This document shows, one piece after another, positions 21,708 through 53,473 of a stretch of 64,000 nt of DNA. This DNA is from Enterovibrio sp. JCM 19048 (GTDB lineage Bacteria > Pseudomonadota > Gammaproteobacteria > Enterobacterales > Vibrionaceae): NCBI GenBank assembly GCA_001310415.1, contig BAXE01000020.1, forward strand, positions 1 to 64,000, in the 5' to 3' direction. Position numbers and translations under genes: made by a program. Position 1 is the first letter of the stretch. Every line of letters starts with the position of its first letter. The notes beneath the pieces were generated by a model, which worked only from the letters and a program-made list of their open reading frames with translations, ran no database searches and was not told the DNA's origin.

Positions 21708-22439
21708 TTAATGTTCGCCACTGCCTAATTCGAGCAGGGTGGCATTCCCCCCTACTGCAGTGACATTTATGGTTCTGGTTCGCTCGGTAATAAACCGGAG
21801 CAAATAGGTTGGCGAGGCGACAAGAGGCAGGTTTTGGGCGTCGTCTTCCGCAACGAACTGCACCAATACGCCATCCCGCGCTGCCAGTTTACGATTGAGT
21901 TCAATCAGGTTGGATGCGTTTGCCACAGCAGCAAACCCGCTTAAGGGGGCTGAGGCAATCGCGGTGTCCAAGGTTTCAACATCAATCAGTGATACCAGAC
22001 GGCTGGGCACACCGGTTTTCACCAGATCGCCCAACAATGCGTCAGCATCATGTTTCAATGCGGCCGGTACGGCGACCAGCACACAATTTCCGGTCACCAG
22101 CGCTGCGGCCAGTTGTCCGGTCAGGGCGATCAGCGACAGCGTCTCGTCCCCGGTTACCACAAACAGTCCCCTGCCTGCGGTGTAAAGTTCGTTTGTTTCG
22201 CCTGTTGGCCCCGGCATCAGGTGAACCGGCGCAATCAGCGTGTTTGCCTGGTTAAGATGGAAACGGATCATGTCTGCCGCCAGCGCAAAGTCGCCTTCGC
22301 GCATGGCCAGGTTGTCCGCCCATTCCGCCAGATGCTTCGCGCGGCTGTTCACGCCCTCTGCATTCCACTCTTCCCAAACCGCCAGGCACTGGGTTGCCAA
22401 TGTCATCACTTCATTCATTTCCTGCACTCCCTTGCTCAT
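21708..22439 (-). CDS. Stand-alone C-terminal domain of trifunctional-type PutA
   Basis: 243 aa. It resembles the C-terminal region of long PutA proteins, including the closing block RFITERTRTINVTAVGGNATLLEL, which in E. coli PutA is part of the same chain. It looks like a degenerate aldehyde dehydrogenase fold (GRGLFVVTGDETLSLIALTG; ALVTGNCVLVAVP) without a catalytic cysteine. It starts with ATGA overlap on the putA stop, so translation is coupled. I infer it associates with PutA to complete the substrate tunnel or oligomer. Confidence 0.75.
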   Translation of the reverse strand: MSKGVQEMNEVMTLATQCLAVWEEWNAEGVNSRAKHLAEWADNLAMREGDFALAADMIRFHLNQANTLIAPVHLMPGPTGETNELYTAGRGLFVVTGDETLSLIALTGQLAAALVTGNCVLVAVPAALKHDADALLGDLVKTGVPSRLVSLIDVETLDTAIASAPLSGFAAVANASNLIELNRKLAARDGVLVQFVAEDDAQNLPLVASPTYLLRFITERTRTINVTAVGGNATLLELGSGEH

Positions 22440-25400
22440 GCCACCACCTCTTCTTTCGTGAAACGATAGAGATAGTGCGGCCCACCCGCTTTCGGACCCG
22501 TCCCTGACAGCCCCTGGCCGCCAAACGGTTGTACGCCAACCACTGCACCTACCTGATCGCGGTTGATGTAACAGTTACCGACACGTGCACGCGATTCAAT
22601 GTGGCAGTAGGTGCTTTCGTTGCGGCTGTGAACACCAAGGGTAAGCCCGAAGCCTGCTGCGTTGATGTCGTTGATCACGCTATCAAGCGCATCGGCTTTG
22701 TAGCGGACAACATGAAGGATTGGGCCGAAATGCTCTTCGCTAAGCGCCGCGATGCTGCCGATTTCAAATGCGATTGGCGCAATGTAAGTACGGCACGGGT
22801 CTCGCTTTTCATAGGTGCTTGGCAATAAATTTCGCGGTTTTGAACAGATGATCGATATGGTTTTGCAACTTGTCCTGCGCCACATCATCAATCACAGGGC
22901 CAACATCTGTGGAGTGCAGATACGGCAAGCCGACACGCATTTCAGCCATCGCCCCCTTGATGAGATTGATAACCCGATCTGCCACATCCTGCTGCACATA
23001 CAGCACTCGCAGCGCCGAACAGCGCTGACCGGCAGAAGCAAATGCCGAACGCAGTACATCGCGCACCACTTGTTCTGGCAGGGCGGTACTGTCCACCAGC
23101 ATGGCGTTTTGCCCGCCGGTTTCTGCAATGAAGGGCACCGGTGACGCCTGACGTGAAGCCAAGGTACGGTTGATGCGCTGCGCGGTTGGTGTCGAACCGG
23201 TAAAGGCCACACCCGCGATACGATCGTCGCTGGTCAACGCGCTGCCAATGGTGGCGCCAGATCCTGGCAACAGGTGAATAACCCCTGTGGGAATGCCGGT
23301 TTCAAGTAACAATTCGATAGTGCGGAATGCAATCAGTGAGGTTTGCTCAGCCGGTTTGGCAACCACGGTGTTACCCGCCACCAATGCTGCTGAGATTTGG
23401 CCGATAAAAATAGCCAGCGGGAAGTTCCATGGGCTGATACAGGTAAAGACGCCACGACCTTCACGGCGCAGTGTCACTTGCTGACCATCGAAACGTGTAA
23501 ACGTGGTGAGATCACCTTCGATTTTTTCCGCCTGAACTGGGTAGTAGCGCAGGAAGTCGACCGCTTCACGCACTTCATCAATACTGTCGTGAATTGTCTT
23601 GCCCGCTTCGCGGTGACAAATTGCCACCAGCTCACCCAGGTTCTCTTCCAGCTTATCAGCCAGCGTGAGTAAGTACTTACCGCGTTCTTTAGCTGTCAGA
23701 CTGCGCCAGGCATCGACATTGGATGCAGCAACGTCCAAAGCAACATCCGCATTTTCTTTGGTCGCCCAGTTCAAAGAACCGACAACAAGTTTGTGATCAA
23801 ACGGCGCAACCACAGCGTGTTCATCACCCACCAGACGGTCGCCATTGATGATGGGGCCCGCCTGCCACTTGGTTTGCATGAAAGGCTGCACCTCAGCCTG
23901 ATATGCCGCCCATTCGCTTTCGATATCCGTCGCCACCCCTTTCGAATTCGCGCGCTCGTCACCGAAGATCTCCAGCGGCAACGGAATGCGGGAATTGTGC
24001 AATGTCGGACGTGACAGCAGGGTATCGACCGGATGTTGGGTCAGATCACTGATCGGACAGGCTGCATCAACCAAACGGTGAACAAAAGAGCTGTTGGCAC
24101 CGTTTTCCAGCAGGCGGCGCACCAGATACGGCAGCAAATCTTTGTGGCTGCCCACAGGCGCATAGATGCGTACTGATTGGCCGAACATGGATTTCGCATG
24201 GTTATACAGGGCATCGCCCATGCCATGCAGGCGCTGGAACTCGTAGTGATCGTGACGCGCCATCGCATTGATTGCAGAAACCGTATGGGCGTTATGGCTG
24301 GCAAACTGCGGGAAGATCAGTCCTTTTACGTGTTCTGACAGCAGGAAGCGTGCGCAGGCAAGGTAGGCCACATCGGTCGCTTCTTTGCGGGTGTAAACCG
24401 GGTAACCCGGCAAACCACGCTGCTGTGACCATTTGATTTCGCTGTCCCAGTATGCGCCTTTCACCAGGCGCATTGGGATCACTGTGCCATTTTCTTTCGC
24501 CAACGCCGCCAGCCAGACGATGACCGGCAAAGCACGCTTGGAATAGGCCTGAACCACCAGACCGAAACCGCCCCAGCCTTTGATATCCGGATGGGTGAAG
24601 AGCTTTTCAAACAGCTTCAGGGAGAGTTCGAGGCGATCCGCTTCTTCGGCGTCAATAGTGATCGCCACTTTCAGCTCGCGGGCACGTTTGAGAAGACGCA
24701 GGACGATGTCAAACATCTCGCCCATAACGCGATCTTCATTGGCCACTTCATAGCGGGGGTGAAGCGCAGAAAGCTTGATAGACACTGACGGCGCCGGTGC
24801 ATTGCCAACGTTGAGTTGCTGCGCGACGGTTTCGATTGCCGTCATGTAGTCATCAAAATACTTGCGCGCATCTTCCATGGTCAGCGCCGCTTCACCCAAC
24901 ATATCAAAGGAGTAGGTAAAGCCTTTCTGGCGATTGGATTTGCCGTTATCCAGGGCTTCATTGATGTTGCGCCCCAGCACAAACTGGTGCCCCATGATCT
25001 TCATGGCCTGGTGCATCGCCTGACGGATAACAGGCTCAGACATCTTGTTCACCAGTTTATTGATGACTTTACCGGCACCACCCTCTTTTTGCTCGTCAAT
25101 GCTCACTACCTTTCCGGTAAGCATCAGCCCCCAGGTAGACGCGTTTACAAACAGGGATTCGGAGCTTTTTAAATGGGCTTTCCAATCCGCCACACCGAGC
25201 TTATCGCGGATCAATGCATCTGCGGTTTTGGTATCCGGCACACGCATCAAAGCCTCAGCCAGACACATGAGCAAAATGCCTTCGCGGGTATCCAGACTGT
25301 ATTCCAACAGCAATGCATCAATCATCTGCACTGCCGTTTTATCGGCGCGGACACGCTCGATCAGGGATGTTGCCGTTTTATCCATCTGGCGGCGTTCATC

Positions 25401-25541
25401 GTCAGCGGGCGTGGCAAGAGGCAGCAACGACTCGAGCAACGCACCTTCATCAACACAGTAGTGTGCTGAAATTTCAGGCCATAAAGCCGCCGTGGGTTGC
25501 TCAAGGTAACTTGGCACCAACACATCGGTCGCTTTTAACAT
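22436..25541 (-). CDS. putA: Bifunctional proline dehydrogenase / P5C dehydrogenase PutA (one frameshift)
   Basis: About 1,035 aa. The FAD-dependent proline dehydrogenase half shows GFTYSFDMLGEAA, SIKLSALHPRYE and MRLVKGAYWDSEIK. The P5C dehydrogenase half shows ISPWNFPLAIFIGQ, FTGSTPTAQRI, the catalytic Glu in FIAETGGQNAML and the catalytic Cys in AGQRCSALRVLY. A frame change near 22815 joins the rest, ending GGQGLSGTGPKAGGPHYL. There is no N-terminal ribbon-helix-helix, so unlike E. coli PutA it is unlikely to repress its own gene; the adjacent AraC regulator probably does this. It converts proline to glutamate. Confidence 0.94.
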
Positions 25542-25745
25542 AAGCAGATTCCTCTCTCCTTGATACCACGAGGCAGTGGCAAATGTTACTAATATGTTAG
25601 ATTAACGACCGATTCTAGGTATGAGGTGCCGGTGAGTCTTTCAAAATTCTGCGGCATTATTGCAAAAAAGTCCGATGATTAACAAACAGAGAACCATCGC
25701 CTCCGCCTGCGCATAACAAGTTTTCTTGCTTTTTAATGATTTAGA

Positions 25746-26519
25746 TCAGTGTTGCTGGCGGAAACGGGATGGGGAAATGCCGAAATAGCGGGTGAAGGCT
25801 GAGGTAAATCCACTTTGGGACGCAAAACCACAGCTGTCTGAGATTTGTGCAAGGTTTAACTGACTGTTACAAAGCAGCTCCTGCGCCATTTCAAAGCGTC
25901 TTTTCAATACGTATTGATGCGGCGTTACACCAGTCTGGGTTTTGAACAGCTGATGAAACTGGCTTTCGGCCAGGAAAACCGAGCCTGCCAACTGGGCAAC
26001 GCTGATTTTGCGACTGATGTGTTTGCGGATATACAGATCGATGATGTCCATGTTCAGACGATGACCATGGCGGCGCGGGGCGATTTGATCACGAAAATGC
26101 CGCTCCATGACACAAAGCAGGGTGTCTGCGCAGGCGCGTCCCAGCATTTCATCGTGCGGATTGGCAATCATCTCGGTTGTCAGGGCTTTAACCAGTGTTT
26201 GAGCCTGGCTGTCGAGCTGGAAATAGGCATCGCGGTCGAAAAGGCGGTCCATACGGTCTTTCATCCCCAGTTCACCCACCAGCACAGGTGAGGGCAGGTT
26301 AATCACCAGTATTTCATTCTGGCCGACGCCGGAGAAAGAATGCAGTTCGGATTCAGATACCAGACACCCCTGACCCGGCCCGACAAGGCTGCCGCGCCCG
26401 GAAAGCTCAAACTCAGTTTGCCCTTGCAGACCAATCACCACCTGACGGTAGTCATGCGCATGCAACGACGGGTGGTTAGGCAACGCCATAACCTGTGAGT
26501 GCTTCAATTCGGATGCCAT
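25746..26519 (-). CDS. AraC-family regulator, probably of the put genes
   Basis: 257 aa from the ATG at 26519 (MASELKHSQVMAL); the in-frame extension to 26609 runs into an RctB-like site and lacks family sequence. An N-terminal cupin (HAHDYRQVVIGLQGQTEFEL) is followed by two helix-turn-helix units (ISVAQLAGSVFLAESQFHQL and LAQISDSCGFASQSGFTSAF). It sits upstream of putA on the same strand, so control of proline catabolism is likely from position and from PutA lacking its own DNA-binding domain. Confidence 0.85.
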   Translation of the reverse strand: MASELKHSQVMALPNHPSLHAHDYRQVVIGLQGQTEFELSGRGSLVGPGQGCLVSESELHSFSGVGQNEILVINLPSPVLVGELGMKDRMDRLFDRDAYFQLDSQAQTLVKALTTEMIANPHDEMLGRACADTLLCVMERHFRDQIAPRRHGHRLNMDIIDLYIRKHISRKISVAQLAGSVFLAESQFHQLFKTQTGVTPHQYVLKRRFEMAQELLCNSQLNLAQISDSCGFASQSGFTSAFTRYFGISPSRFRQQH

Positions 26520-26594
26520 AGTAATCAAAAAACAACAACAATATTGCGGGCTATTTTGCCACGCCGACCCACTTAACGAGAAGCGAAATCGCAA

Positions 26595-26609
26595 CGGAAA
26601 CATGATCAA
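26595..26609 (-). promoter_or_regulatory. RctB iteron-like site outside ori2
   Basis: On the minus strand this reads TTGATCATGTTTCCG, with the same TGATCAT core and T/C-rich flank as the ori2 iterons. It lies just upstream of the AraC gene start. Confidence 0.55.
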
Positions 26610-26794
26610 GAGTGGTACAAACTACGGCATTTGTCATTTCGATTTAAAAACTGTGCAGGATCTCGACATTTCCGGCGCTTAAGATCGTCTTCCGGTCATC
26701 GGACCAAAGCTAACCTGGGGGCAATAAACGCGCAACTGAATGATATTAAAAGCATTAACTGCTCCACTTCATCGATTTACATCATCATCAATGC

Positions 26795-26809
26795 TTGATC
26801 ATGCTTTCA
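26795..26809 (+). promoter_or_regulatory. RctB iteron-like site outside ori2
   Basis: CTTGATCATGCTTTCA here is identical over 16 bases to a site in the ori2 region (50561-50576). It contains a Dam GATC. Confidence 0.65.
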
Positions 26810-26833
26810 AGGGTTCAGCCACAGGATCATTTC

Positions 26834-26849
26834 ATGATCATCGTTCCGG
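26834..26849 (+). promoter_or_regulatory. RctB iteron-like site outside ori2
   Basis: ATGATCATCGTTCCGG matches the ori2 iteron at 51221 (ATGATCATCATTCCGG) in 15 of 16 positions. It starts 39 bp after the previous site. Confidence 0.65.
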
Positions 26850-27217
26850 TGAAACCGGATCTTTGCCCTTTCATTTATTTGTTATTTCACACGCGCTATT
26901 CAGTTTAATTCAAAGTCCCGTCAATAAAATGGCGGAAATTATGCTTATGAACGTCAAATAAAATGGCATTTCTGAAAGTTTAACTACAATTAAATGAGTT
27001 ATTTCTTAGTGCAGCAAAAGTAGATAAAATTTATTGGGTTATTTGGCAAAACATCAGAATTGAAGAATAACGATAAACGTCAAATAATGAGTAACATCGG
27101 AAAGCTATTTATCATTTCCATGTTAATCTACAAATTTGGGACAGGCTTTTTGATATCAAGCCCACGTTATATCTAGGGACTTGGTATCGGTAGGTATTGA
27201 GAATAAGCAAGGGACAT

Positions 27218-29054
27218 ATGAAAAGTAATCGCATCACCGCGTTGGTATTCGCGTTATCGCCGATACTTCTTAGTAGTCAACCGCTTGCCAATGAGGCCAC
27301 TGTCGCAACCAACGATCCTGTGGTTGCGCTGGAGCAGAAGCTAGCTGATAAAAGAAGTGAAATTAGCGCACATGCCGAAAACCTCCAAACGCAGAGAGAT
27401 AAGCTGGAAGCGTTATTAACAGAGCGCGAAACGCTGGCGACTAAAGCTATTGAGCTTGAAAAAAACGTACTCAGGCACAAGAACGATTAGACGAGCAATT
27501 CCGTCGACTGATTGAAAACCCTGATACCGACCTTACTCAGTACAGAGACGACTACCAAGTTGCATGGAATGCGTTAAAAGAAAACCAAGCAGCGACGTTG
27601 GTAAATGATCAGGCTATCTCTGAACAACAGCGCATTGTTGAAGGTGAAAACCGTCAGAAACAACTGTTGGTCAGCACACTCGAAAATCTGCAGGAAGCGA
27701 AAAAAGAAGCGCGTGTTAAACGCCTTCGTCAAGAGCTGACTTTCGCCGACACCATTGAAGTGGTTCACACCATCACCTGTAGCGAATCAATGACGCTCGC
27801 AGCGTGTGCAAACCAAGGTAAGACACTGACCATGCAAAAGGCAGTGAACACCTTCCAGTCACAGGTTCTGGATAACGTCACCGAATCCACAACAGCGAAG
27901 CTGAACGCGAACCGCGTATCGTTCAATATCCATGTGATGAACAGCAATGTGGTTGACAGTGGCTTTAGTGGTACCAACCGCTATATCACACGTATGCAGG
28001 CAGAAATGCGCAGCCAGCCAGACGAAAATGCAGCATGTAAGCTGCTTGATTTTGCTGAGCGTTACTGTGTAGAAGAACCTTTTACTACTGCGAAGCAGGC
28101 TACCAAGCAGCAGGCAAAACGCTGGGTTAACGTCAAAATCCGTTCTAACCGTTACGAAGACAATGTGACGATCAACGGTGTAACTTACGGCTCAACACCG
28201 GTTGAAATCATGCTGCCCGCCGGTCAACACCAACTGACTGTCGAAAAGCCTGGGTTTGAAGCGTACAGCCGCCAAATGTACATGAACAAAGATTCTGAAA
28301 TTTGGGCCAACCTGCGCGAACAGGAGAATCGTCCAAAGCCGGGAAAGCAATTCGCTGACAAACTTTCTAACAACCATCAGGCACCTAAAATGGTGGTCAT
28401 TGGCGCGGGTCAGTACCGCGTAGGATATGAAGCCCAACAGCCTGTCTTGGTTGATCAACCTTTCTCGATTGCGGCAACCCCGGTTACCGTGAAGCAGTTT
28501 GGAGAGTTTGTCGCCGCCACCGGATATGTCACAGATGCGGAAGAAGGCCAAGGTTGCACCACGCTGATGAACGGTGAGTCCAAACAAATGCTCAACCATC
28601 ACTGGCGCAAACCGGGTTTTGACCAAAGTGAAAACTCTCCAGTGGTATGTATCACTAAAGACGATGCGAAAGCCTATTCTGACTGGCTGAGCAAACAAAC
28701 TGGATTTGATTACTCCCTGCCAACAGAAGTGCAATGGGAAGTCGCAGCACGTGCTGGTAGCGAGTCTGATTACTGGTGGGGCGATGACATTGGTGTTGGT
28801 AACGCCAACACAGGTTGGAGCGGTACTGTGTGGTCAAACAAAAGTACGTCTCCGGTGGGCAGCTTCCCAGCCAACCCATTTGGTGTCTATGACACCGCGG
28901 GCAACGTATGGGAATGGGCGGAAAGTCAAGCACCGGTCGCACGTGGAGGCGCCTGGAGCTTCTCGCCAAGCAGCGCCCGTGTTGCCGAACGATTAGAGCT
29001 GAAATCCGACCTTAGCGCGAACTATCTGGTTTCCGCGTCGTCCGCAATATTTAG
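27218..29054 (+). CDS. FGE-sulfatase/PEGA-domain secreted protein (two frameshifts)
   Basis: About 610 aa. A signal peptide (TALVFALSPILLSSQPLANE) leads into a long coiled coil (residues about 35-170), then a PEGA-like beta domain (VTINGVTYGSTPVEIMLPAG) and a C-terminal formylglycine-generating-enzyme fold: PFSIAATPVTVKQFGEFVAA, SPVVCITKDDAKAYSDWLS, LPTEVQWEVAARAG, NPFGVYDTAGNVWEWAES, ARGGAWSF. Frame changes near 27475 and near 29030; the second, a missing G, restores the standard ending LGFRVVRNI. The Cys pair of true FGE is not evident, so it is probably a binding or structural module acting in the periplasm. Confidence 0.82.
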
Positions 29055-29077
29055 TCCTGACACAACATTGTCCCTAA

Positions 29078-29103
29078 AGCCCGCTGATGCGGGCTTTTTT
29101 TGC
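29078..29103 (+). terminator. Rho-independent terminator
   Basis: AAAGCCCGC, TGAT, GCGGGCTTT followed by TTTT, 23 bp after the FGE-domain gene. Confidence 0.88.
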
Positions 29104-29246
29104 TTTGTTTTTGCCAATGGATAATTTCCCAGACACCATTGTCTGCACATCTTAAAAACGCGATCAAGTTCTCTAATAAGAAACTGATTAATCAATAAAT
29201 TACAAAATAGTCCAATCCCCCCCTGTCCGGTTTTCTGGCTGCTGAG

Positions 29247-29443
29247 TATAGTGTTTTCCGAACAGCGGGGTACTTGGTTATCCCGCTGTTTCATCACTGA
29301 AATTTACCTCGGTGAACCACTTGCTCCCGTGTCCAAACCCTCGAGCACGGAAATGAGTGGCCTCTTCTACACGTCGAACAGGAAATACTCAATTTGAGTA
29401 AGACTTGTCTTTACCGGCTCCCTACGAGCCGGTTTTTTTATGC
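29247..29443 (+). ncRNA. Possible small RNA ending at a strong terminator
   Basis: The 473-bp gap before the LuxR gene contains an isolated terminator (ACCGGCTC, CCTAC, GAGCCGGTTTTTTT, about 29413-29440) that no upstream gene uses, since the FGE gene already has its own. A TATAGT hexamer at 29247-29252 could be a -10 box, but I see no good -35. A transcript of about 185 nt would include a hairpin near 29263-29290 (AACAGCGGG with CCCGCTGTT). Speculative. Confidence 0.3.
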
Positions 29444-29527
29444 TATAAAACTCTTAATTTTCATGTTTTTACTGTAAACTGCATCCAATTTACAATACAC
29501 CGACCTATAAATAAGCATCCTACAGCC

Positions 29528-30238
29528 ATGTTTGACCAAGCCCTCCCCCCTACACAACTTATTGCCCTGTTCGAGCAACTCCCGGGATGCTGGGGATGCA
29601 AGGATACGCAGTCCCGGTTTGTTCACGTGAATAAAGCCTACGCCAATCTGGTGGGGGTCAGCTCACCCAATGCTTTGGTCGGGCAAACAGACGATGATTT
29701 ACCCGGGAGGTTGGCAAGCTGCGCCGCCAGGTTCCAGCAACAGGATAAACAGGTTCTGGCAACCGGCCGCCCGATGCGGGTACTGAACATCCACCCTTAT
29801 ACAAACGGATACTGGCAAGCCCATGTATTTACCAAGATATTGTGGAAAGATGATGAGGGGCGTGTATTGGGCACCATTTTTCATGGTCAGCCACTGGACG
29901 AAAACCCGATGCTGGAAGTGGGACAATGGTTGTGCAAAGCCTTTGAAGGACAAGGGGATGCGGCATTTTCAACCCACAGGGCTGACTTGTCCGTCCATCT
30001 TTCCAACCGCGAATCTGAAGTGCTGTTTTTTCACCTTTATGGCAAAAAGCCACAGTTTATCGCGCAGGCGCTCGGGGTCTCGGTCAAAACCGTCGAAAAC
30101 CATTTTGCCAATTTACGGGTTAAGCTGGGCGCGGGCAGTAAGACAGAAATCGTAGACAAGGCGTTAGAGCTCGGGGTTGGGTGTAAAATCCCTGCCTCTT
30201 TGCTCAACCAACAACTCACGATGGTGCTGGCCAATTAG
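29528..30238 (+). CDS. PAS-LuxR transcriptional regulator
   Basis: 236 aa from the ATG at 29528; the open frame upstream crosses a terminator. The N-terminal PAS-like sensor (PGCWGCKDTQSRFVHVNKAY, then DDDLPGR) is followed by a C-terminal LuxR helix-turn-helix (LSNRESEVLFFHLYGKKPQF, then VSVKTVENHFANLRVKLGA). No receiver domain is present, so it is not a standard response regulator. Targets are not visible. It converges on pdxH with a shared terminator. Confidence 0.88.
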   Translation: MFDQALPPTQLIALFEQLPGCWGCKDTQSRFVHVNKAYANLVGVSSPNALVGQTDDDLPGRLASCAARFQQQDKQVLATGRPMRVLNIHPYTNGYWQAHVFTKILWKDDEGRVLGTIFHGQPLDENPMLEVGQWLCKAFEGQGDAAFSTHRADLSVHLSNRESEVLFFHLYGKKPQFIAQALGVSVKTVENHFANLRVKLGAGSKTEIVDKALELGVGCKIPASLLNQQLTMVLAN

Positions 30239-30256
30239 TTGCGGCAAACAAACAGG

Positions 30257-30287
30257 GTCAAAAAAGCAGCCGAGGCTGCTTTTTTGC
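30257..30287. terminator. Bidirectional terminator between the LuxR gene and pdxH
   Basis: AAAAAAGCAGCC, GAG, GGCTGCTTTTTT is symmetrical, with A- and T-runs on both sides, and lies between two convergent genes. Confidence 0.9.
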
Positions 30288-30289
30288 GT

Positions 30290-30928
30290 TTATGGCGCTA
30301 AGCGCTCAATATCCCATTTTCCATTCTCTTCGTCCTGGTAAACGAAGCGGTCATGCAGGCGGTGCTCACCACCTTGCCAGAATTCGAATGCTTCAGGCTT
30401 AACACGAAAGCCTCCCCAAAATGTCGGCACCGGCACTTCGCCTTTCTCAAACTGTTGCTTTAGCTCCATGTATTTGGACTCAAGTGCAGAGCGCGCGGTA
30501 ATACGCTCACTCTGGCGGCTCGCCCATGCAGCAAGCTGGCTTTCTTTTGGACGGGAGAGGAAGTATTTCATCACTTCCAGCTTACTCAGCTTTTCAGCGC
30601 GCCCCATGATGTGCACTTGTCGCTCAAGCGGGTGCCAGGGGAAATGGAGGCTTATCTTGGCATTATGGGCCAGTTGTTTCGCTTTACGGCTACCGAGGTT
30701 GGTATAGAAGATGAAACCATCACTGCCGACATGTTTTAGCAGCACAATACGTTGAAAAGGCTGGCCATTTTCGTCAACAGTCGCCACTGTCATGGCTGTC
30801 GGGTCTGGAAGCTTGGCATCAATGGCTTGTTTGAGCCAGTGCTCAAAGAATTGAACAGGGTTTTCCGGCAGGTCTTTGCGTCTCAAACCGCCTTGGTTAT
30901 ATTCTCTGCGAATATCATACAAATCCAT
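30290..30928 (-). CDS. pdxH: Pyridoxamine 5'-phosphate oxidase PdxH
   Basis: 212 aa from the ATG at 30928; the upstream extension is not homologous. The family signature runs from [20 protein letters not shown] through [20 protein letters not shown] and [16 protein letters not shown] to [16 protein letters not shown] and the C-terminal WDIERLAP. The FMN-dependent enzyme makes pyridoxal 5'-phosphate from the pyridoxine or pyridoxamine phosphate in the cytoplasm. Intact frame, own promoter region, shared terminator. Confidence 0.96.
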
Positions 30929-31067
30929 CGTGGTGCTCCGAATACGTTTTTCGCCATTGTGAGGTGACCGATGGCATTTCTCAAGCGAATTTGCCCAAGA
31001 TAGACGGGAACAGAGCGCTTTACCGGCACTCTTCATCCAGAAAGCACCACACACATGCAGGGAAGCC

Positions 31068-32895
31068 ATGCGCCGACACTCCTTCATTATCGCCGTCACT
31101 TTGTTCGGGATTGCCTTGGGCGCAATGGTGGCGGCTTTCACCTATTATTCGGTTGAAAAGCGCTTTATCAAAGATATCGAAAACGATGTCTTCCAATTAC
31201 AGGAGAAGCTCGCTGCCGAACTCGCACGATACAGCGAAATTCCGGTTGTCCTTTCTACTGATCCACGCTTAAAGCGGTTGCTCCGCGTTCCTAACAGCAA
31301 ACGCTTATCCAGCGGCACTAATCAATTGCTCGAAGACTGGAACGCCCGATTAAACAGCGATGTTATCTATCTGATGGACAAAGACGGCCAGACACTTGCT
31401 GCCAGTAATTTTGCCAGCGACAGCAGTTTCGTCGGGTACAACTACAGCTACCGCCCATACTTCCAACAAGCCATTGAAGGCAACAAAGGCCGCTATTATG
31501 CGTTAGGCGTGGTGTCCGATAAACGCGGCTACTACTTTTCTTACCCAGTATGGGATGGCGACACCATCAGCGGTGTCCTCACCTTGAAAGTCGATTTGTC
31601 CATCATTGACCGCATCTGGGATCAGCAGCAGTTCGACTATCTTATTGCCGACCCCCTGGGCGTCATCTTCTACAGCTCCCGTGATGAGTGCTCTACCAGA
31701 CACTGCCCATTCTGACCGAGACGCAAAAGGCCGCTATCCGAGACTCACGCCGATACGGTAAATCCACACTGGAGAGTCTCACCGCCTACCATGAGCTGGA
31801 AGAAATAGAGCCTTTAACCACGCTCGACATCGGGTATGAAGAAATCGGCCGGGAGCATGTGTTGGTCTCCAGCACCGATCTGGGCAGCGCGGGTTGGCGT
31901 ATTTACGGGTTTACCCCTACCAGTCAGGCATGGCCGATTATGATCCAGTCTGTGCTGCTGTTTTCTACCTTCTACGTGCTGTTGGCTCTGGTGCTTACCG
32001 CCTGGCTGCAAACGGTGAAAGCTCAGCGCAAACTGGCCCTACTCAATGATGAGCTGGAGCAAAAGGTCGCTTCACGCACAGCGAGCCTTGAAGATACCAA
32101 CGCCAAACTCCGCGAAAGCATTGCTCAGTATGAAGACACCCAAAAAGCGCTGCGCCAGACAGAAAACGAACTGATCCAGGCCGCCAAGCTTGCCATGCTG
32201 GGTGAGCTTTCCGCCAGCATTAACCATGAAATCAACCAGCCGCTGGCGGCCATGCGTACCTACACCGAAAACAGCATCAAACTGATGGAAAAGGAACGTT
32301 TTGATGCGGTAAAAGGGAACCTCACTACGCTCAACGAATTGATTGGCATGGTGGCAGACATTGTTGCCCGCTTTAAGATCTTCGCCCGCAAGCAAAATGC
32401 CGGTGGCAAAGCCCGCGCCAACCTGGACGATGTGCTGTCGGCATCGCTCAAACTCTCTTCGGCCAGCTTTATCAAGAAAGGGATCCAGATAGCCTGCCAC
32501 AAGCCGGAAAAAGGAATAATCGTCAATGCCGATACGGTACAACTGGAACAGGTAATTCTAAACCTGCTTAACAACGCTTCCCACGCGGTTGAACATGCCT
32601 CGATGCCGGAAATCGGCATTACTGTCGAAACCTTTCTCGACCGGGTTTCCATTCACGTATGGGATAACGGTGCCGGACTCGACAATGACTCCAAAAAGCA
32701 GGTATTCACCCGTTCTACACCACCAAACGGGATGGTCTCGGCCTTGGCCTGACAATTTGCCGCCGGATTATTGAAGGCTTTGGCGGTACCCTGCAGGTCG
32801 GGGATCACGCCAGTGGCGGTGCCGAATTCACCATCAGTTTGCAGCGGCTCTATGAAGGAGAACAACCCAATGACCCCGGAAATATGGATCATTGA
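31068..32895 (+). CDS. dctB: DctB-type sensor histidine kinase (two frameshifts)
   Basis: About 610 aa membrane sensor kinase. Two membrane helices flank a periplasmic double-PAS (Cache-like) domain with the ligand-site region [24 protein letters not shown]. Coiled coil and kinase core follow: H-box [22 protein letters not shown]-box [16 protein letters not shown] frame change near 31690 lies in the sensor domain and another near 32712 leads to [20 protein letters not shown] and an end at 32895. The DctB family senses C4-dicarboxylates; no dicarboxylate transporter gene is nearby. It overlaps dctD by 26 bp. Confidence 0.87.
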
Positions 32896-50376: not shown

Positions 50377-50421
50377 CCGGAACGGTGAAAAAGGTCGTCG
50401 AAATTACGGACGGTGTCATTT
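50377..50421 (+). repeat. 39-mer-like RctB regulatory repeat, copy 1
   Basis: It begins CCGGAACGGTGAAA and matches a second copy at 50715 in 32 of 45 positions without gaps. Long repeats of this kind on the parA2 side of ori2 are expected to be RctB 39-mer sites that inhibit initiation; assignment is by position and pairing. Confidence 0.6.
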
Positions 50422-50527: not shown

Positions 50528-50561
50528 AGAGTCATCAACATCGTTTTGGCTTACTGTTCTC

Positions 50562-50688
50562 TTGATCATGCTTTCACGAAATTCACCTAGGATAGGAAAA
50601 ATGATCAAGGTTTGAAAAGCGTTGTATTTTTCGTCATCTAAACCCGCATACGGATCCTTTTTCCCGAATCGATGATCAAGTAAATCCA
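50562..50688. promoter_or_regulatory. Scattered RctB iterons in the ori2 regulatory region
   Basis: TTGATCATGCTTTCA at 50562 (plus), TTGATCATTTTTCC read on the minus strand at about 50597-50609, and an ATGATCAAG site at 50672. They share the TGATCA core with the ordered array but are unevenly spaced and in both orientations. Confidence 0.6.
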
Positions 50689-50714: not shown

Positions 50715-50759
50715 CCGGAACGATGAAAGGTAGCGGCGAATTTACGGTTGATGCCTTTT
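50715..50759 (+). repeat. 39-mer-like RctB regulatory repeat, copy 2
   Basis: Begins CCGGAACGATGAAA; aligns without gaps to the copy at 50377, with matching blocks at both ends and in TTTACGG/ATTACGG. The two copies are 338 bp apart in the same orientation. Confidence 0.6.
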
Positions 50760-51128: not shown

Positions 51129-51259
51129 ATGATCATGCTTTTGAGGCGGTGATGATCACGGTTTCGGGGTGTTGATGATCATTGTTGCGGGTCTCTAATG
51201 ATCATGCTTTCAATACTTTAATGATCATCATTCCGGCATTGTCATGATCATTGTTTCGG
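51129..51259 (+). repeat. Six RctB iterons at exact 23-bp spacing
   Basis: The units start at 51129, 51152, 51175, 51198, 51221 and 51244, each beginning ATGATCA followed by a T/C-rich tail such as TTGTTTCGG. All face the same way. Each contains GATC, so Dam methylation can control RctB binding. The spacing is close to two helical turns, placing all RctB molecules on nearly one face. Confidence 0.9.
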
Positions 51260-51490: not shown

Positions 51491-53473
51491 ATGGCCTCTA
51501 GTCCCGCGGAAAAAATACTGATCACTGCCCCTCGATCCCACAAAGATGGGCACCTGTTTGAAGTGCATTCACAGTTGATCGACTGGCTTCCCCAATACGA
51601 GCATTTCAAAGGGGTCACCAAAAGCATATTGGAGCTGCTCAACCTCATTTCCCTGCGAGGCTTTTCATCCAAAGACGGCCTGGTTTCTACAACGGAACTG
51701 GTCGAGGCCACTGACGGGCATTTGACCCGCGCTGCTATCCAGCAACGCTTGCGTGCTGCCGTACAGATTGGTTTGTTTACCCAGCAGGGTGTCCGCTTTG
51801 AAGAAGGGCTGGCGGGGAAAACCATGCTGCACCGCTTTGTCAATCCAAGCCAGTTGATCTCGGTACTGGGCTCTGCTGGCCTGCAGTCTGAAAAGACCCG
51901 TGTTATTGCCAAGCAAAAGCGCTCAAAAGCACTGGCACAAAATCACGTGAACAAGCAGCTGCTGAGTGAACATGGCCTCGGTACGCCGCCAACCATGCCG
52001 GATGAGAAAGATCAGATCCTGATCTCCCCCACCAGCTGGGCGGGCATTATTGACCAGGCACTGGCGCCACCGCGCACCAAAAAGAGCTACCAGAAATCCA
52101 TGGTGGCGATCAGTGGCACTAAAGCGATCATCGAAACCCGATCATCCAAGTCAATCATGACTGTGGACGATCTGATGACGCTGTTTGCCCTGTTCACATT
52201 GACGGTGCAATACCACGATCATCACCTGCCAAGCTATGAGCTTCAGACCCAGAAGGTGGGCAACAAAACCCCGGTATATATCACCGATATTCTCTCGCTT
52301 CGCGGCAAAAAAGACAGCGGCCCGGCCCGTGATTCTATCCGTGAGAGTATTGATCGGATCGAGTTTACTGACTTCCAGCTTCATGAACTCACCGGCCGTT
52401 GGTTGAGTGAAAACATGCCGGAAGGTTTCAAAAGTGACCGATTCCGTTTTATCGCACGGACCATTACTGCGTCAGAAGAAGCACCACGTGAGGGGGAAGA
52501 CGGTGAAATCCGTATTAAACCCAACCTGTACATCATGGTGTGGGAGCCGTCATTTTTTGAAGAATTGATGACCCGCGATTACTTTTTCCTGTTTCCACCG
52601 GAAATCCTGCGTCAGCATACCCTGGTGTTCCAGCTCTATACGCTCTTCAGAAGCCGTATGTCGCGTCGACTGGAAGATTCCATGCTCCTGAGCGAATTGA
52701 ACCAGAAAATGGCGAGAAACATCGAATGGCGGCGTTTTTCGAGTGATCTGATCCGGGAGCTGCGTAAGCTGGCGAAAAAAGAGAGTCAGGCAGACGGTGT
52801 GTTTGCGGTAAACCTGTACGGTTATCACTTGACCCTGTACCGCATGGACGATGACAAAAAGCATCCGGACTACCGCATGGATATCAAATGCAACGTCGAC
52901 GAGGTGATCCGTTTCTCACGTGCCAAAACGTACAACGAAGGCAAGCGATCCCTGGCGCCGACCATGCCTAACCCGCTGCGTAATGAGATCATGCCTAAAC
53001 AAGACCTTGATCAGCTTTCCGGGATCATCGACGGAGAGTTTGAACCTATCCAGCGCAAAGAGAAGCGGGGAGGGCGCCTGGGACGCCGCGTGAAGCTGCG
53101 CAAGCACCTGGTGGAGATCAACGCTGACGAGTTGACCATTACGCTGTCAAAATACACCTCGCCGGAAGCGCTGCAGCGCAGTATCACCGCTTTGTCTGCC
53201 ATGACAGGTCACCCCGCAGCAACCATCGCTGAGGAATGTCAGGCCTTTATGGACAAGCTCGACTGGCTGCGTGTGGATGGGGAAGTGATGTCCTACGACA
53301 CGCTGAGTAAAACCATTGAGTTTTACAACAGCCAACAGGATGAAAAACATCTTTCGATTGAGCGTTTAATTTCCGGTTTGGCAGTACGCCGAAAGGTTTG
53401 CCGCCAAGTATATGACGGTCATTTAGACAGTACGGTACTGGCTGTACTGGATGAAGTGGCGTCCGGTGCCTGA
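51491..53473 (+). CDS. rctB: Chromosome 2 replication initiator RctB
   Basis: 660 aa, intact (V. cholerae RctB is 658). The start has AAGGAG eight bases upstream. The sequence opens AGCAAGG..MASSPAEKILITAPRS and contains VHSQLIDWLPQYEHFKG and IIDQALAPPRTKKSYQKS, which I recognise as RctB of Vibrionaceae. It has winged-helix domains and binds iterons and 39-mers to start chromosome 2 replication. It lies directly beside ori2, as expected, and probably controls its own promoter through the adjacent sites. The family occurs only in Vibrionaceae, which sets the taxonomic placement. Confidence 0.96.
   Translation: MASSPAEKILITAPRSHKDGHLFEVHSQLIDWLPQYEHFKGVTKSILELLNLISLRGFSSKDGLVSTTELVEATDGHLTRAAIQQRLRAAVQIGLFTQQGVRFEEGLAGKTMLHRFVNPSQLISVLGSAGLQSEKTRVIAKQKRSKALAQNHVNKQLLSEHGLGTPPTMPDEKDQILISPTSWAGIIDQALAPPRTKKSYQKSMVAISGTKAIIETRSSKSIMTVDDLMTLFALFTLTVQYHDHHLPSYELQTQKVGNKTPVYITDILSLRGKKDSGPARDSIRESIDRIEFTDFQLHELTGRWLSENMPEGFKSDRFRFIARTITASEEAPREGEDGEIRIKPNLYIMVWEPSFFEELMTRDYFFLFPPEILRQHTLVFQLYTLFRSRMSRRLEDSMLLSELNQKMARNIEWRRFSSDLIRELRKLAKKESQADGVFAVNLYGYHLTLYRMDDDKKHPDYRMDIKCNVDEVIRFSRAKTYNEGKRSLAPTMPNPLRNEIMPKQDLDQLSGIIDGEFEPIQRKEKRGGRLGRRVKLRKHLVEINADELTITLSKYTSPEALQRSITALSAMTGHPAATIAEECQAFMDKLDWLRVDGEVMSYDTLSKTIEFYNSQQDEKHLSIERLISGLAVRRKVCRQVYDGHLDSTVLAVLDEVASGA

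What the first reader, a model, noticed from the sequence alone, without database searches (positions are those of the whole stretch)
26595..26849. RctB iterons 24 kb away from ori2, next to the proline regulator
The gene-free block between the AraC regulator and the FGE gene carries three sites with the ori2 iteron pattern: one identical over 16 bases to a site inside the ori2 region and one matching another iteron in 15 of 16 bases. In V. cholerae, as I recall, extra RctB-binding sites outside ori2 help restrain chromosome 2 initiation. These could titrate or hand over RctB, or let RctB affect the araC-putA promoter.
Basis: partly seen in the sequence, partly recalled or inferred. Interest (0 to 1): 0.75.

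Follow-up and report, generated by a model that had tools for sequence, protein, structure and literature searches.

The report
Conserved second-chromosome replication brake site
A short stretch of DNA 24 kb from the origin of the second chromosome carries binding sites for that chromosome's replication starter protein, is kept in most relatives (even where the neighbouring regulator gene is missing), and is probably the counterpart of a known brake on replication in the cholera bacterium.

Summary
Together they form a 39-bp hybrid (26595-26633): a 39-mer whose distal half is a complete, Dam-methylatable iteron. In the fetched Vibrionaceae loci the hybrid has one geometry, a gap of 8 or 9 bp in 114 of 114 pairs. 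The paired TGATCA is present in 76 of 78 putR-upstream 39-mer heads but 1 of 95 ori2 heads. A profile matches 319 of 329 family genomes, against 10 of 184 genomes of other families, weakly. It is present in 10 of 13 genomes without a PutR match, so it is hardly a PutR operator. The external iterons belong to the ori2 regulatory class, not the array class. Spacing in a V. cholerae-like genome places the locus on the published external RctB sites, which bind RctB and lower ori2 copy number. Best reading: a conserved, datA-like RctB control site. Regulation of putR is possible but unsupported. RctB binding was not measured here.

The parts
26595..26633 (.). Hybrid RctB site: 39-bp element made of an iteron (minus strand, 26595-26610) and a 39-mer head (plus strand, TACGG at 26623), back to back
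   Evidence: iteron score 20.4; 39-mer score 23.4; fixed gap; best profile match in own genome, E 2.4e-14
26619..26645 (+). 39-mer head AAACTACGGCATTTGTCATTTCGATTT (scored stretch)
   Evidence: third best of the window after the two ori2 39-mers
26794..26809 (+). Regulatory-class iteron CTTGATCATGCTTTCA, identical over 16 bases to 50561-50576
26833..26849 (+). Regulatory-class iteron CATGATCATCGTTCCGG, 39 bp from the previous one in the same orientation
25749..26519 (-). AraC-family regulator next to putA (PutR-like); the hybrid lies about 75-115 bp upstream of its ATG
   Evidence: Pfam HTH_18/HTH_AraC; homologue at E<=1e-40 in 88 of 101 family genomes
22809..25541 (-). putA (proline dehydrogenase), shorter than in relatives
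   Evidence: Pfam Pro_dh and Aldedh; 910 aa against about 1035 aa in most loci shown
27598..29124 (+). PEGA plus FGE-sulfatase domain gene, right neighbour
   Evidence: Pfam
29405..30238 (+). PAS-LuxR regulator, VqmA-like (name recalled); the element stays near it in several genomes without PutR
   Evidence: Pfam PAS_4 and GerE
50378..50415 (+). ori2 39-mer without GATC (comparison)
   Evidence: score 32.6; distal half GATC-less
50716..50753 (+). second ori2 39-mer without GATC (comparison)
   Evidence: score 28.6
51129..51259 (+). six ordered ori2 iterons, 23-bp spacing (comparison)
51491..53473 (+). rctB, chromosome 2 initiator
   Evidence: Pfam RctB_central E 1.2e-185 and HTH_55

Best explanation
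The block is a conserved extra-origin RctB control site on chromosome 2. Its core is a 39-bp hybrid of an inhibitory-type 39-mer and a complete iteron; two more regulatory-class iterons lie about 190-230 bp away in opposite orientation. RctB binds it, and the site lowers initiation at ori2 by holding initiator (titration), by bridging RctB-bound DNA to ori2 (handcuffing), or both, much as the homologous V. cholerae sites do on a reporter replicon. Shown here: sites, geometry, conservation, class, presence without PutR. Shown by others in V. cholerae: RctB binding and inhibition. Inferred: that this species' block does the same, and the balance of titration and bridging.
For: Site quality and rarity. 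Hybrid gap 8 or 9 bp in 114 of 114 pairs. In 14 Grimontia/Enterovibrio sequences 42 of 48 site columns are invariant against 56 of 322 neighbouring columns. 319 of 329 family genomes match the profile at E<=0.01 (by hand count 277 at <=1e-7); outside the family 10 of 184, best 4.5e-5. Present in 10 of 13 genomes without a PutR match. Regulatory iteron class: C at -2 in 97% of putR-upstream sites, 92% of ori2 non-array sites, 21% of array sites; -2 was not part of the matrix. Agreement with the published V. [quoted passage not shown]
Against: No binding or replication data for this species. The element need not be near ori2: 12 of 70 putR-rctB pairs lie over 100 kb apart. In V. cholerae the inhibition was seen with sites cloned on a plasmid vector; the three sites later mutated singly had minimal effects, but those were on Chr1. 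10 of 329 family genomes have no profile match, four of them 99-100% complete and 3.6-5.9 Mb (G101, G221, G246, G286). Of the 13 without PutR, G001 shows none and the fragmented G041 and G067 only E about 0.008. In 16 of 94 putR loci no 39-mer head reached the cut-off, so that half is weak or absent in parts of the family.
Confidence: 0.74

Rival explanations
1. RctB works here as a transcription regulator of putR/putA (proline use), linking chromosome 2 initiator level to metabolism.
For: The 39-mer head starts about 95-290 bp upstream of putR in most loci, up to 452 bp in a few, and the element goes with putR where putR lies over 100 kb from rctB (12 of 70 pairs).
Against: The element is present in 10 of 13 genomes without a PutR match; in G086 it sits by the VqmA-like gene while a diverged putR lies 7 kb off. 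RctB hardly affected the two other genes tested in V. cholerae.
Confidence: 0.1
2. The sites are operators of PutR or another regulator that only resemble RctB sites.
For: Position upstream of a regulator gene.
Against: Both the iteron and the 39-mer halves match matrices built only from ori2; present in 10 of 13 genomes without a PutR match; the V. cholerae sites that I take as homologous bind purified RctB.
Confidence: 0.04
3. The block is a relic of a duplicated ori2 control region with little present function.
For: It shares site types with the regulatory part of ori2.
Against: Invariance of site columns amid diverged flanks in 14 sequences, presence in genomes of 2.1 and 2.6 Mb, and the consistent difference from ori2 39-mers in having TGATCA.
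Confidence: 0.08
4. Chance matches.
For: None seen.
Against: Rarity and clustering in the genome and family-wide conservation.
Confidence: 0.005

Closest known systems
Vibrio cholerae external chrII RctB sites chrII-1, -5, -6, -9, -10, -11 (Baek and Chattoraj 2014, PMC3937223)
   Same: Same put-FGE neighbourhood for most of them, inferred from spacing in a V. cholerae-like genome; [quoted passage not shown] in V. cholerae they bind RctB and lower ori2 copy number.
   Different: About 25 kb from rctB here, 57 kb in the V. cholerae-like genome; no iteron pair inside putA in this window; the parts of the paper I read do not describe gene context, conservation of these sites or a fixed hybrid geometry.
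ori2-inc 39-mers and regulatory iterons
   Same: Same half-elements; an ATnnTTyC tail stands at the iteron's offset in 37 of 95 ori2 heads; same iteron class.
   Different: ori2 39-mer heads lack TGATCA in the distal half (94 of 95), the external ones have it (76 of 78).
E. coli datA
   Same: Initiator-binding locus outside the origin that restrains initiation (comparison made in PMC3937223 and PMC6090056, passages).
   Different: Different initiator and sites; datA promotes DnaA-ATP hydrolysis, and the passages I saw describe no such activity for RctB sites.
crtS
   Same: Extra-origin RctB site conserved in Vibrionaceae.
   Different: On chromosome 1, enhances initiation, reported to bear no similarity to iterons or 39-mers.

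Membership tests
RctB iteron (11/12-mer) | TGATCA with conserved flank, matching ori2 iterons | tested here: met
   scores 20.4, 21.6, 22.2 against training median 19.6
RctB iteron (11/12-mer) | Dam-methylation-dependent RctB binding | not testable with these tools
   GATC present in all three; binding not measured
RctB 39-mer | TTACGG-type head with TG/CATTTCA downstream and a TTCCG half-site at fixed distance | tested here: met
   score 23.4, layout as in ori2; the first T of TTACGG is C in the 14 Grimontia/Enterovibrio sequences
RctB 39-mer | No Dam site inside (stated for ori2 39-mers in PMC6090056) | tested here: not met
   TGATCA lies inside the 39 bp, so it is called a hybrid and not a standard 39-mer
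V. cholerae external RctB inhibitory locus | Same chromosomal neighbourhood | tested here: met
   putA-putR-FGE-vqmA-like order in G290; site spacings of 5.85 kb and about 67 kb agree with the published coordinates within about 1.3 kb; G290's identity rests on a recalled diagnostic primer, exact in 1 of 227 genomes
V. cholerae external RctB inhibitory locus | Iterons plus iteron-in-39-mer composite | tested here: met
V. cholerae external RctB inhibitory locus | RctB binding in vivo/in vitro and lowering of mini-ori2 copy number | not testable with these tools
   no wet data for this species

The most novel reading that the evidence does not exclude
The hybrid is a fork-passage sensor. Fully methylated, it can hold RctB through its iteron half (which needs methylation) and its 39-mer half (which does not); just after the fork passes, hemimethylation (and SeqA) blocks the iteron half, so only the inhibitory 39-mer mode is left. 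Doubling and switching together would make a timed brake on re-initiation of chromosome 2, which would explain why TGATCA is kept in the external 39-mer and absent from ori2 39-mers across the family.
Probability: 0.2. Interest if true: 0.85.

Novelty: new member of a known kind. Interest (0 to 1): 0.62.

Why it matters
In the papers I saw, external RctB sites are described in one species and treated as titration sites of uncertain weight. Here the same element is traced through most of a family, with one geometry, and it is found where its neighbouring regulator gene is missing. That points to a core part of secondary-chromosome copy control and not a species detail. It also sets apart a kind of RctB site, a methylatable 39-mer hybrid, in which the two binding modes of RctB meet at one place and can be tested apart with single-base changes in laboratory species.

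Tried and rejected
Chance clustering: rejected. PutR operator: rejected as sole reading because the element is present without a PutR match. Strict need to lie near ori2: rejected, 12 of 70 pairs are over 100 kb apart. My own early note that genus g5 (G005, G015) lacks an external cluster was wrong: I had taken sites 13-15 kb from the record end for ori2; searches show hybrid plus iterons next to putA. A known RNA in 25500-31500: none at Rfam gathering scores. A paper search for PutR in Vibrio gave nothing relevant among the 15 listed of 1,059; a search for at least two of four VCA107x gene names found no paper. The reversed-pattern control of the genome search is weak for this motif (CTAG is rare in general; recalled), so I relied on genome counts, Markov sequences and the other-family control.

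Limits: the iteron matrix was trained on TGATCA sites, so conservation of TGATCA among sites found with it is circular; therefore started from 39-mer heads alone. The 114 pairs are 110 distinct sequences, 4 of them in ori2 loci with degenerate iterons. 'Without PutR' means no match at E<=1e-40; loss of putA was seen only in the fetched stretches, not tested genome-wide. Up to 49 of the 329 genomes supplied a training sequence. Counts at 1e-5 and 1e-7 are by hand. The 70 distances are putR to rctB; one further same-contig pair, G027, whose diverged putR carries no hybrid, was left out. The places listed were cut by the tool.

Full report
What is there. The window is C20:1-64000 of a 5.27-Mb draft genome in 70 contigs; the named records with PutR 79-91% identical are Grimontia and Enterovibrio (12 loci), with Veronia at 68%. 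rctB lies at 51491-53473 (Pfam RctB), preceded by ori2 with six ordered iterons. The block between a PutR-like AraC gene and a PEGA/FGE gene holds three iterons, at 26595 (minus), 26794 and 26833 (plus). Their scores of 20.4, 21.6 and 22.2 lie above the median (19.6) of the 240 training sites from 34 ori2 loci. In the whole genome TGATCATNNTTYC occurs 25 times: 8 in ori2, 3 here, 14 elsewhere and not clustered.

The missed half. Aligning 14 Grimontia/Enterovibrio upstream regions, the window's included, showed an extra conserved stretch beside the 26595 iteron. A matrix from 65 ori2 39-mer heads (32 of 35 ori2 loci) ranks the block's AAACTACGGCATTTGTCATTTCGATTT third in the 64 kb (23.4), after the two ori2 39-mers (32.6, 28.6). 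The next best is 11.8; 40 random 64-kb sequences gave at most 20.8.

One geometry. In the 144 sequences then held (143 loci and the window), every back-to-back pair of iteron and 39-mer head had a gap of 8 or 9 bp (82 and 32 of 114; 0-14 allowed), while other arrangements gave 10 pairs in all. The reason is visible in ori2: its 39-mer heads often carry an ATnnTTyC tail at the same offset (37 of 95), but without GATC. Starting from 39-mer heads only, TGATCA stands at the fixed offset in 76 of 78 putR-upstream heads and 1 of 95 ori2 heads. 16 of 94 putR loci had no head above the cut-off and are not in that count, 5 of them from genus g10; in several of the 16 an iteron is present while the 39-mer half is weak. 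In the window the element spans 39 bp, 26595-26633. So the external site is a 39-mer whose distal half is a full iteron.

Two iteron classes. Array iterons prefer A at -1 (73%) and T at +11 (61%) with no strong bias at -2. Non-array ori2 iterons and putR-upstream sites mostly read C-T-TGATCAT-nn-TTCCG. C at -2 is 21% (191 array sites), 92% (213) and 97% (268 sites from 91 of the 94 putR loci plus the window); -2 is outside the matrix. The external sites are therefore of the regulatory class.

Conservation. In 14 sequences 42 of 48 site columns are invariant against 56 of 322 others in the same stretch. A sequence-only profile from 49 hybrids matches 319 of 329 family genomes at E<=0.01; by hand count 302 reach 1e-5 and 277 reach 1e-7. 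Ten have no match, among them four that are 99-100% complete and 3.6-5.9 Mb. This genome has two matches, the block at 2.4e-14 and an ori2 39-mer at 3.7e-6. In an order-wide draw of 197 genomes all 13 family members match, and 10 of 184 others do, best 4.5e-5.

Presence without putR. Of the 13 genomes without a PutR match at E<=1e-40, 10 have the hybrid. In G042, G056, G082 and G094 it lies within about 2 kb of the VqmA-like gene. In G068 it lies at the end of another contig. G002 and G021 are small (2.1 and 2.6 Mb) and have it within 6 kb of rctB. In G005, G011 and G015 it lies next to putA. It was not found in G001, and G041 and G067 gave only E about 0.008. In G027 and G086 a diverged putR lies elsewhere while the hybrid stays by the VqmA-like gene. 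Of 70 putR-rctB pairs on one contig, 56 are within 35 kb, 2 at 57-61 kb and 12 over 100 kb (G027 left out).

Link to published work. Baek and Chattoraj (PMC3937223; abstract and two stretches read, plus passages) found six V. [quoted passage not shown] G290 is taken as V. cholerae-like from a recalled primer, exact in 1 of 227 genomes, and a 1.106-Mb contig that holds rctB. Its sites lie at 567,730 (FGE gene), 570,443-570,507 (hybrid), 573,537 and 573,629 (inside putA) and 640,474. The distances of 5.85 kb and about 67 kb between the putA pair and the outer sites agree with the published coordinates within about 1.3 kb. One more G290 site, at 412,769 on the other side of rctB, has no published counterpart in that span. 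I infer that chrII-5/-6 are the putA pair and chrII-10 the hybrid; the paper's table of sites was not seen. The later ChIP-seq paper (PMC11711613; section 6 read, and passages) reports 6 regions on Chr2 and minimal or no transcription effect of RctB on two tested genes, with a weak significant one on VC1803. The passages that I saw of PMC6090056, PMC5854411 and PMC5991422 do not mention conservation of these external sites. My searches listed no paper titled or abstracted on it; this does not prove that none exists.

How it probably works. RctB bound at the block would take initiator from ori2 and could bridge to ori2 sites; both modes are described for 39-mers and ori2-inc iterons (PMC6090056 passages). 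Which mode dominates is not known. The retained GATC inside a 39-mer suggests, but does not show, sensitivity to hemimethylation after fork passage.

Noticed in passing
22436-25541: putA reads as a 910-aa frame followed by a 150-aa frame in another register, while most relatives shown have one frame of about 1035 aa; either a sequence error in the draft or a real frameshift. Described only.
   Followed up: partly
27219-29124: The likely start of the PEGA/FGE gene at 27219 is in a different frame from its main ORF (27598-29124), a second apparent frameshift close by.
   Followed up: no
43636, 45659 (window) and C20:77731: Single iteron-like sites on the same contig, the first two inside ORFs between the block and ori2; 3 of the 14 sites outside the two clusters are on this one contig. 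Conservation not tested.
   Followed up: no
L097:8537-8641; L054, L069, L149 inside putA: Vibrio genomes, the V. cholerae-like one included, carry a pair of opposed regulatory iterons inside the putA coding sequence, about 92-104 bp apart; the window has none there.
   Followed up: partly
L026, L028, L032, L034, L038, L042 upstream of putR: These genomes of genus g7 (Photobacterium-like) have a second hybrid on the opposite strand in the same intergenic region, with an iteron on either side of its 39-mer.
   Followed up: partly
PMC5854411 methods passage: The published crtS search string ends in ATGCTTTCGG, which looks like the tail of an RctB iteron (ATnnTTyCG).
   Followed up: no
G329, G354, G488: Three genomes of one genus outside the family match the hybrid profile weakly (E 4.5e-5 to 2.1e-4) at similar model positions; origin unknown.
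   Followed up: no
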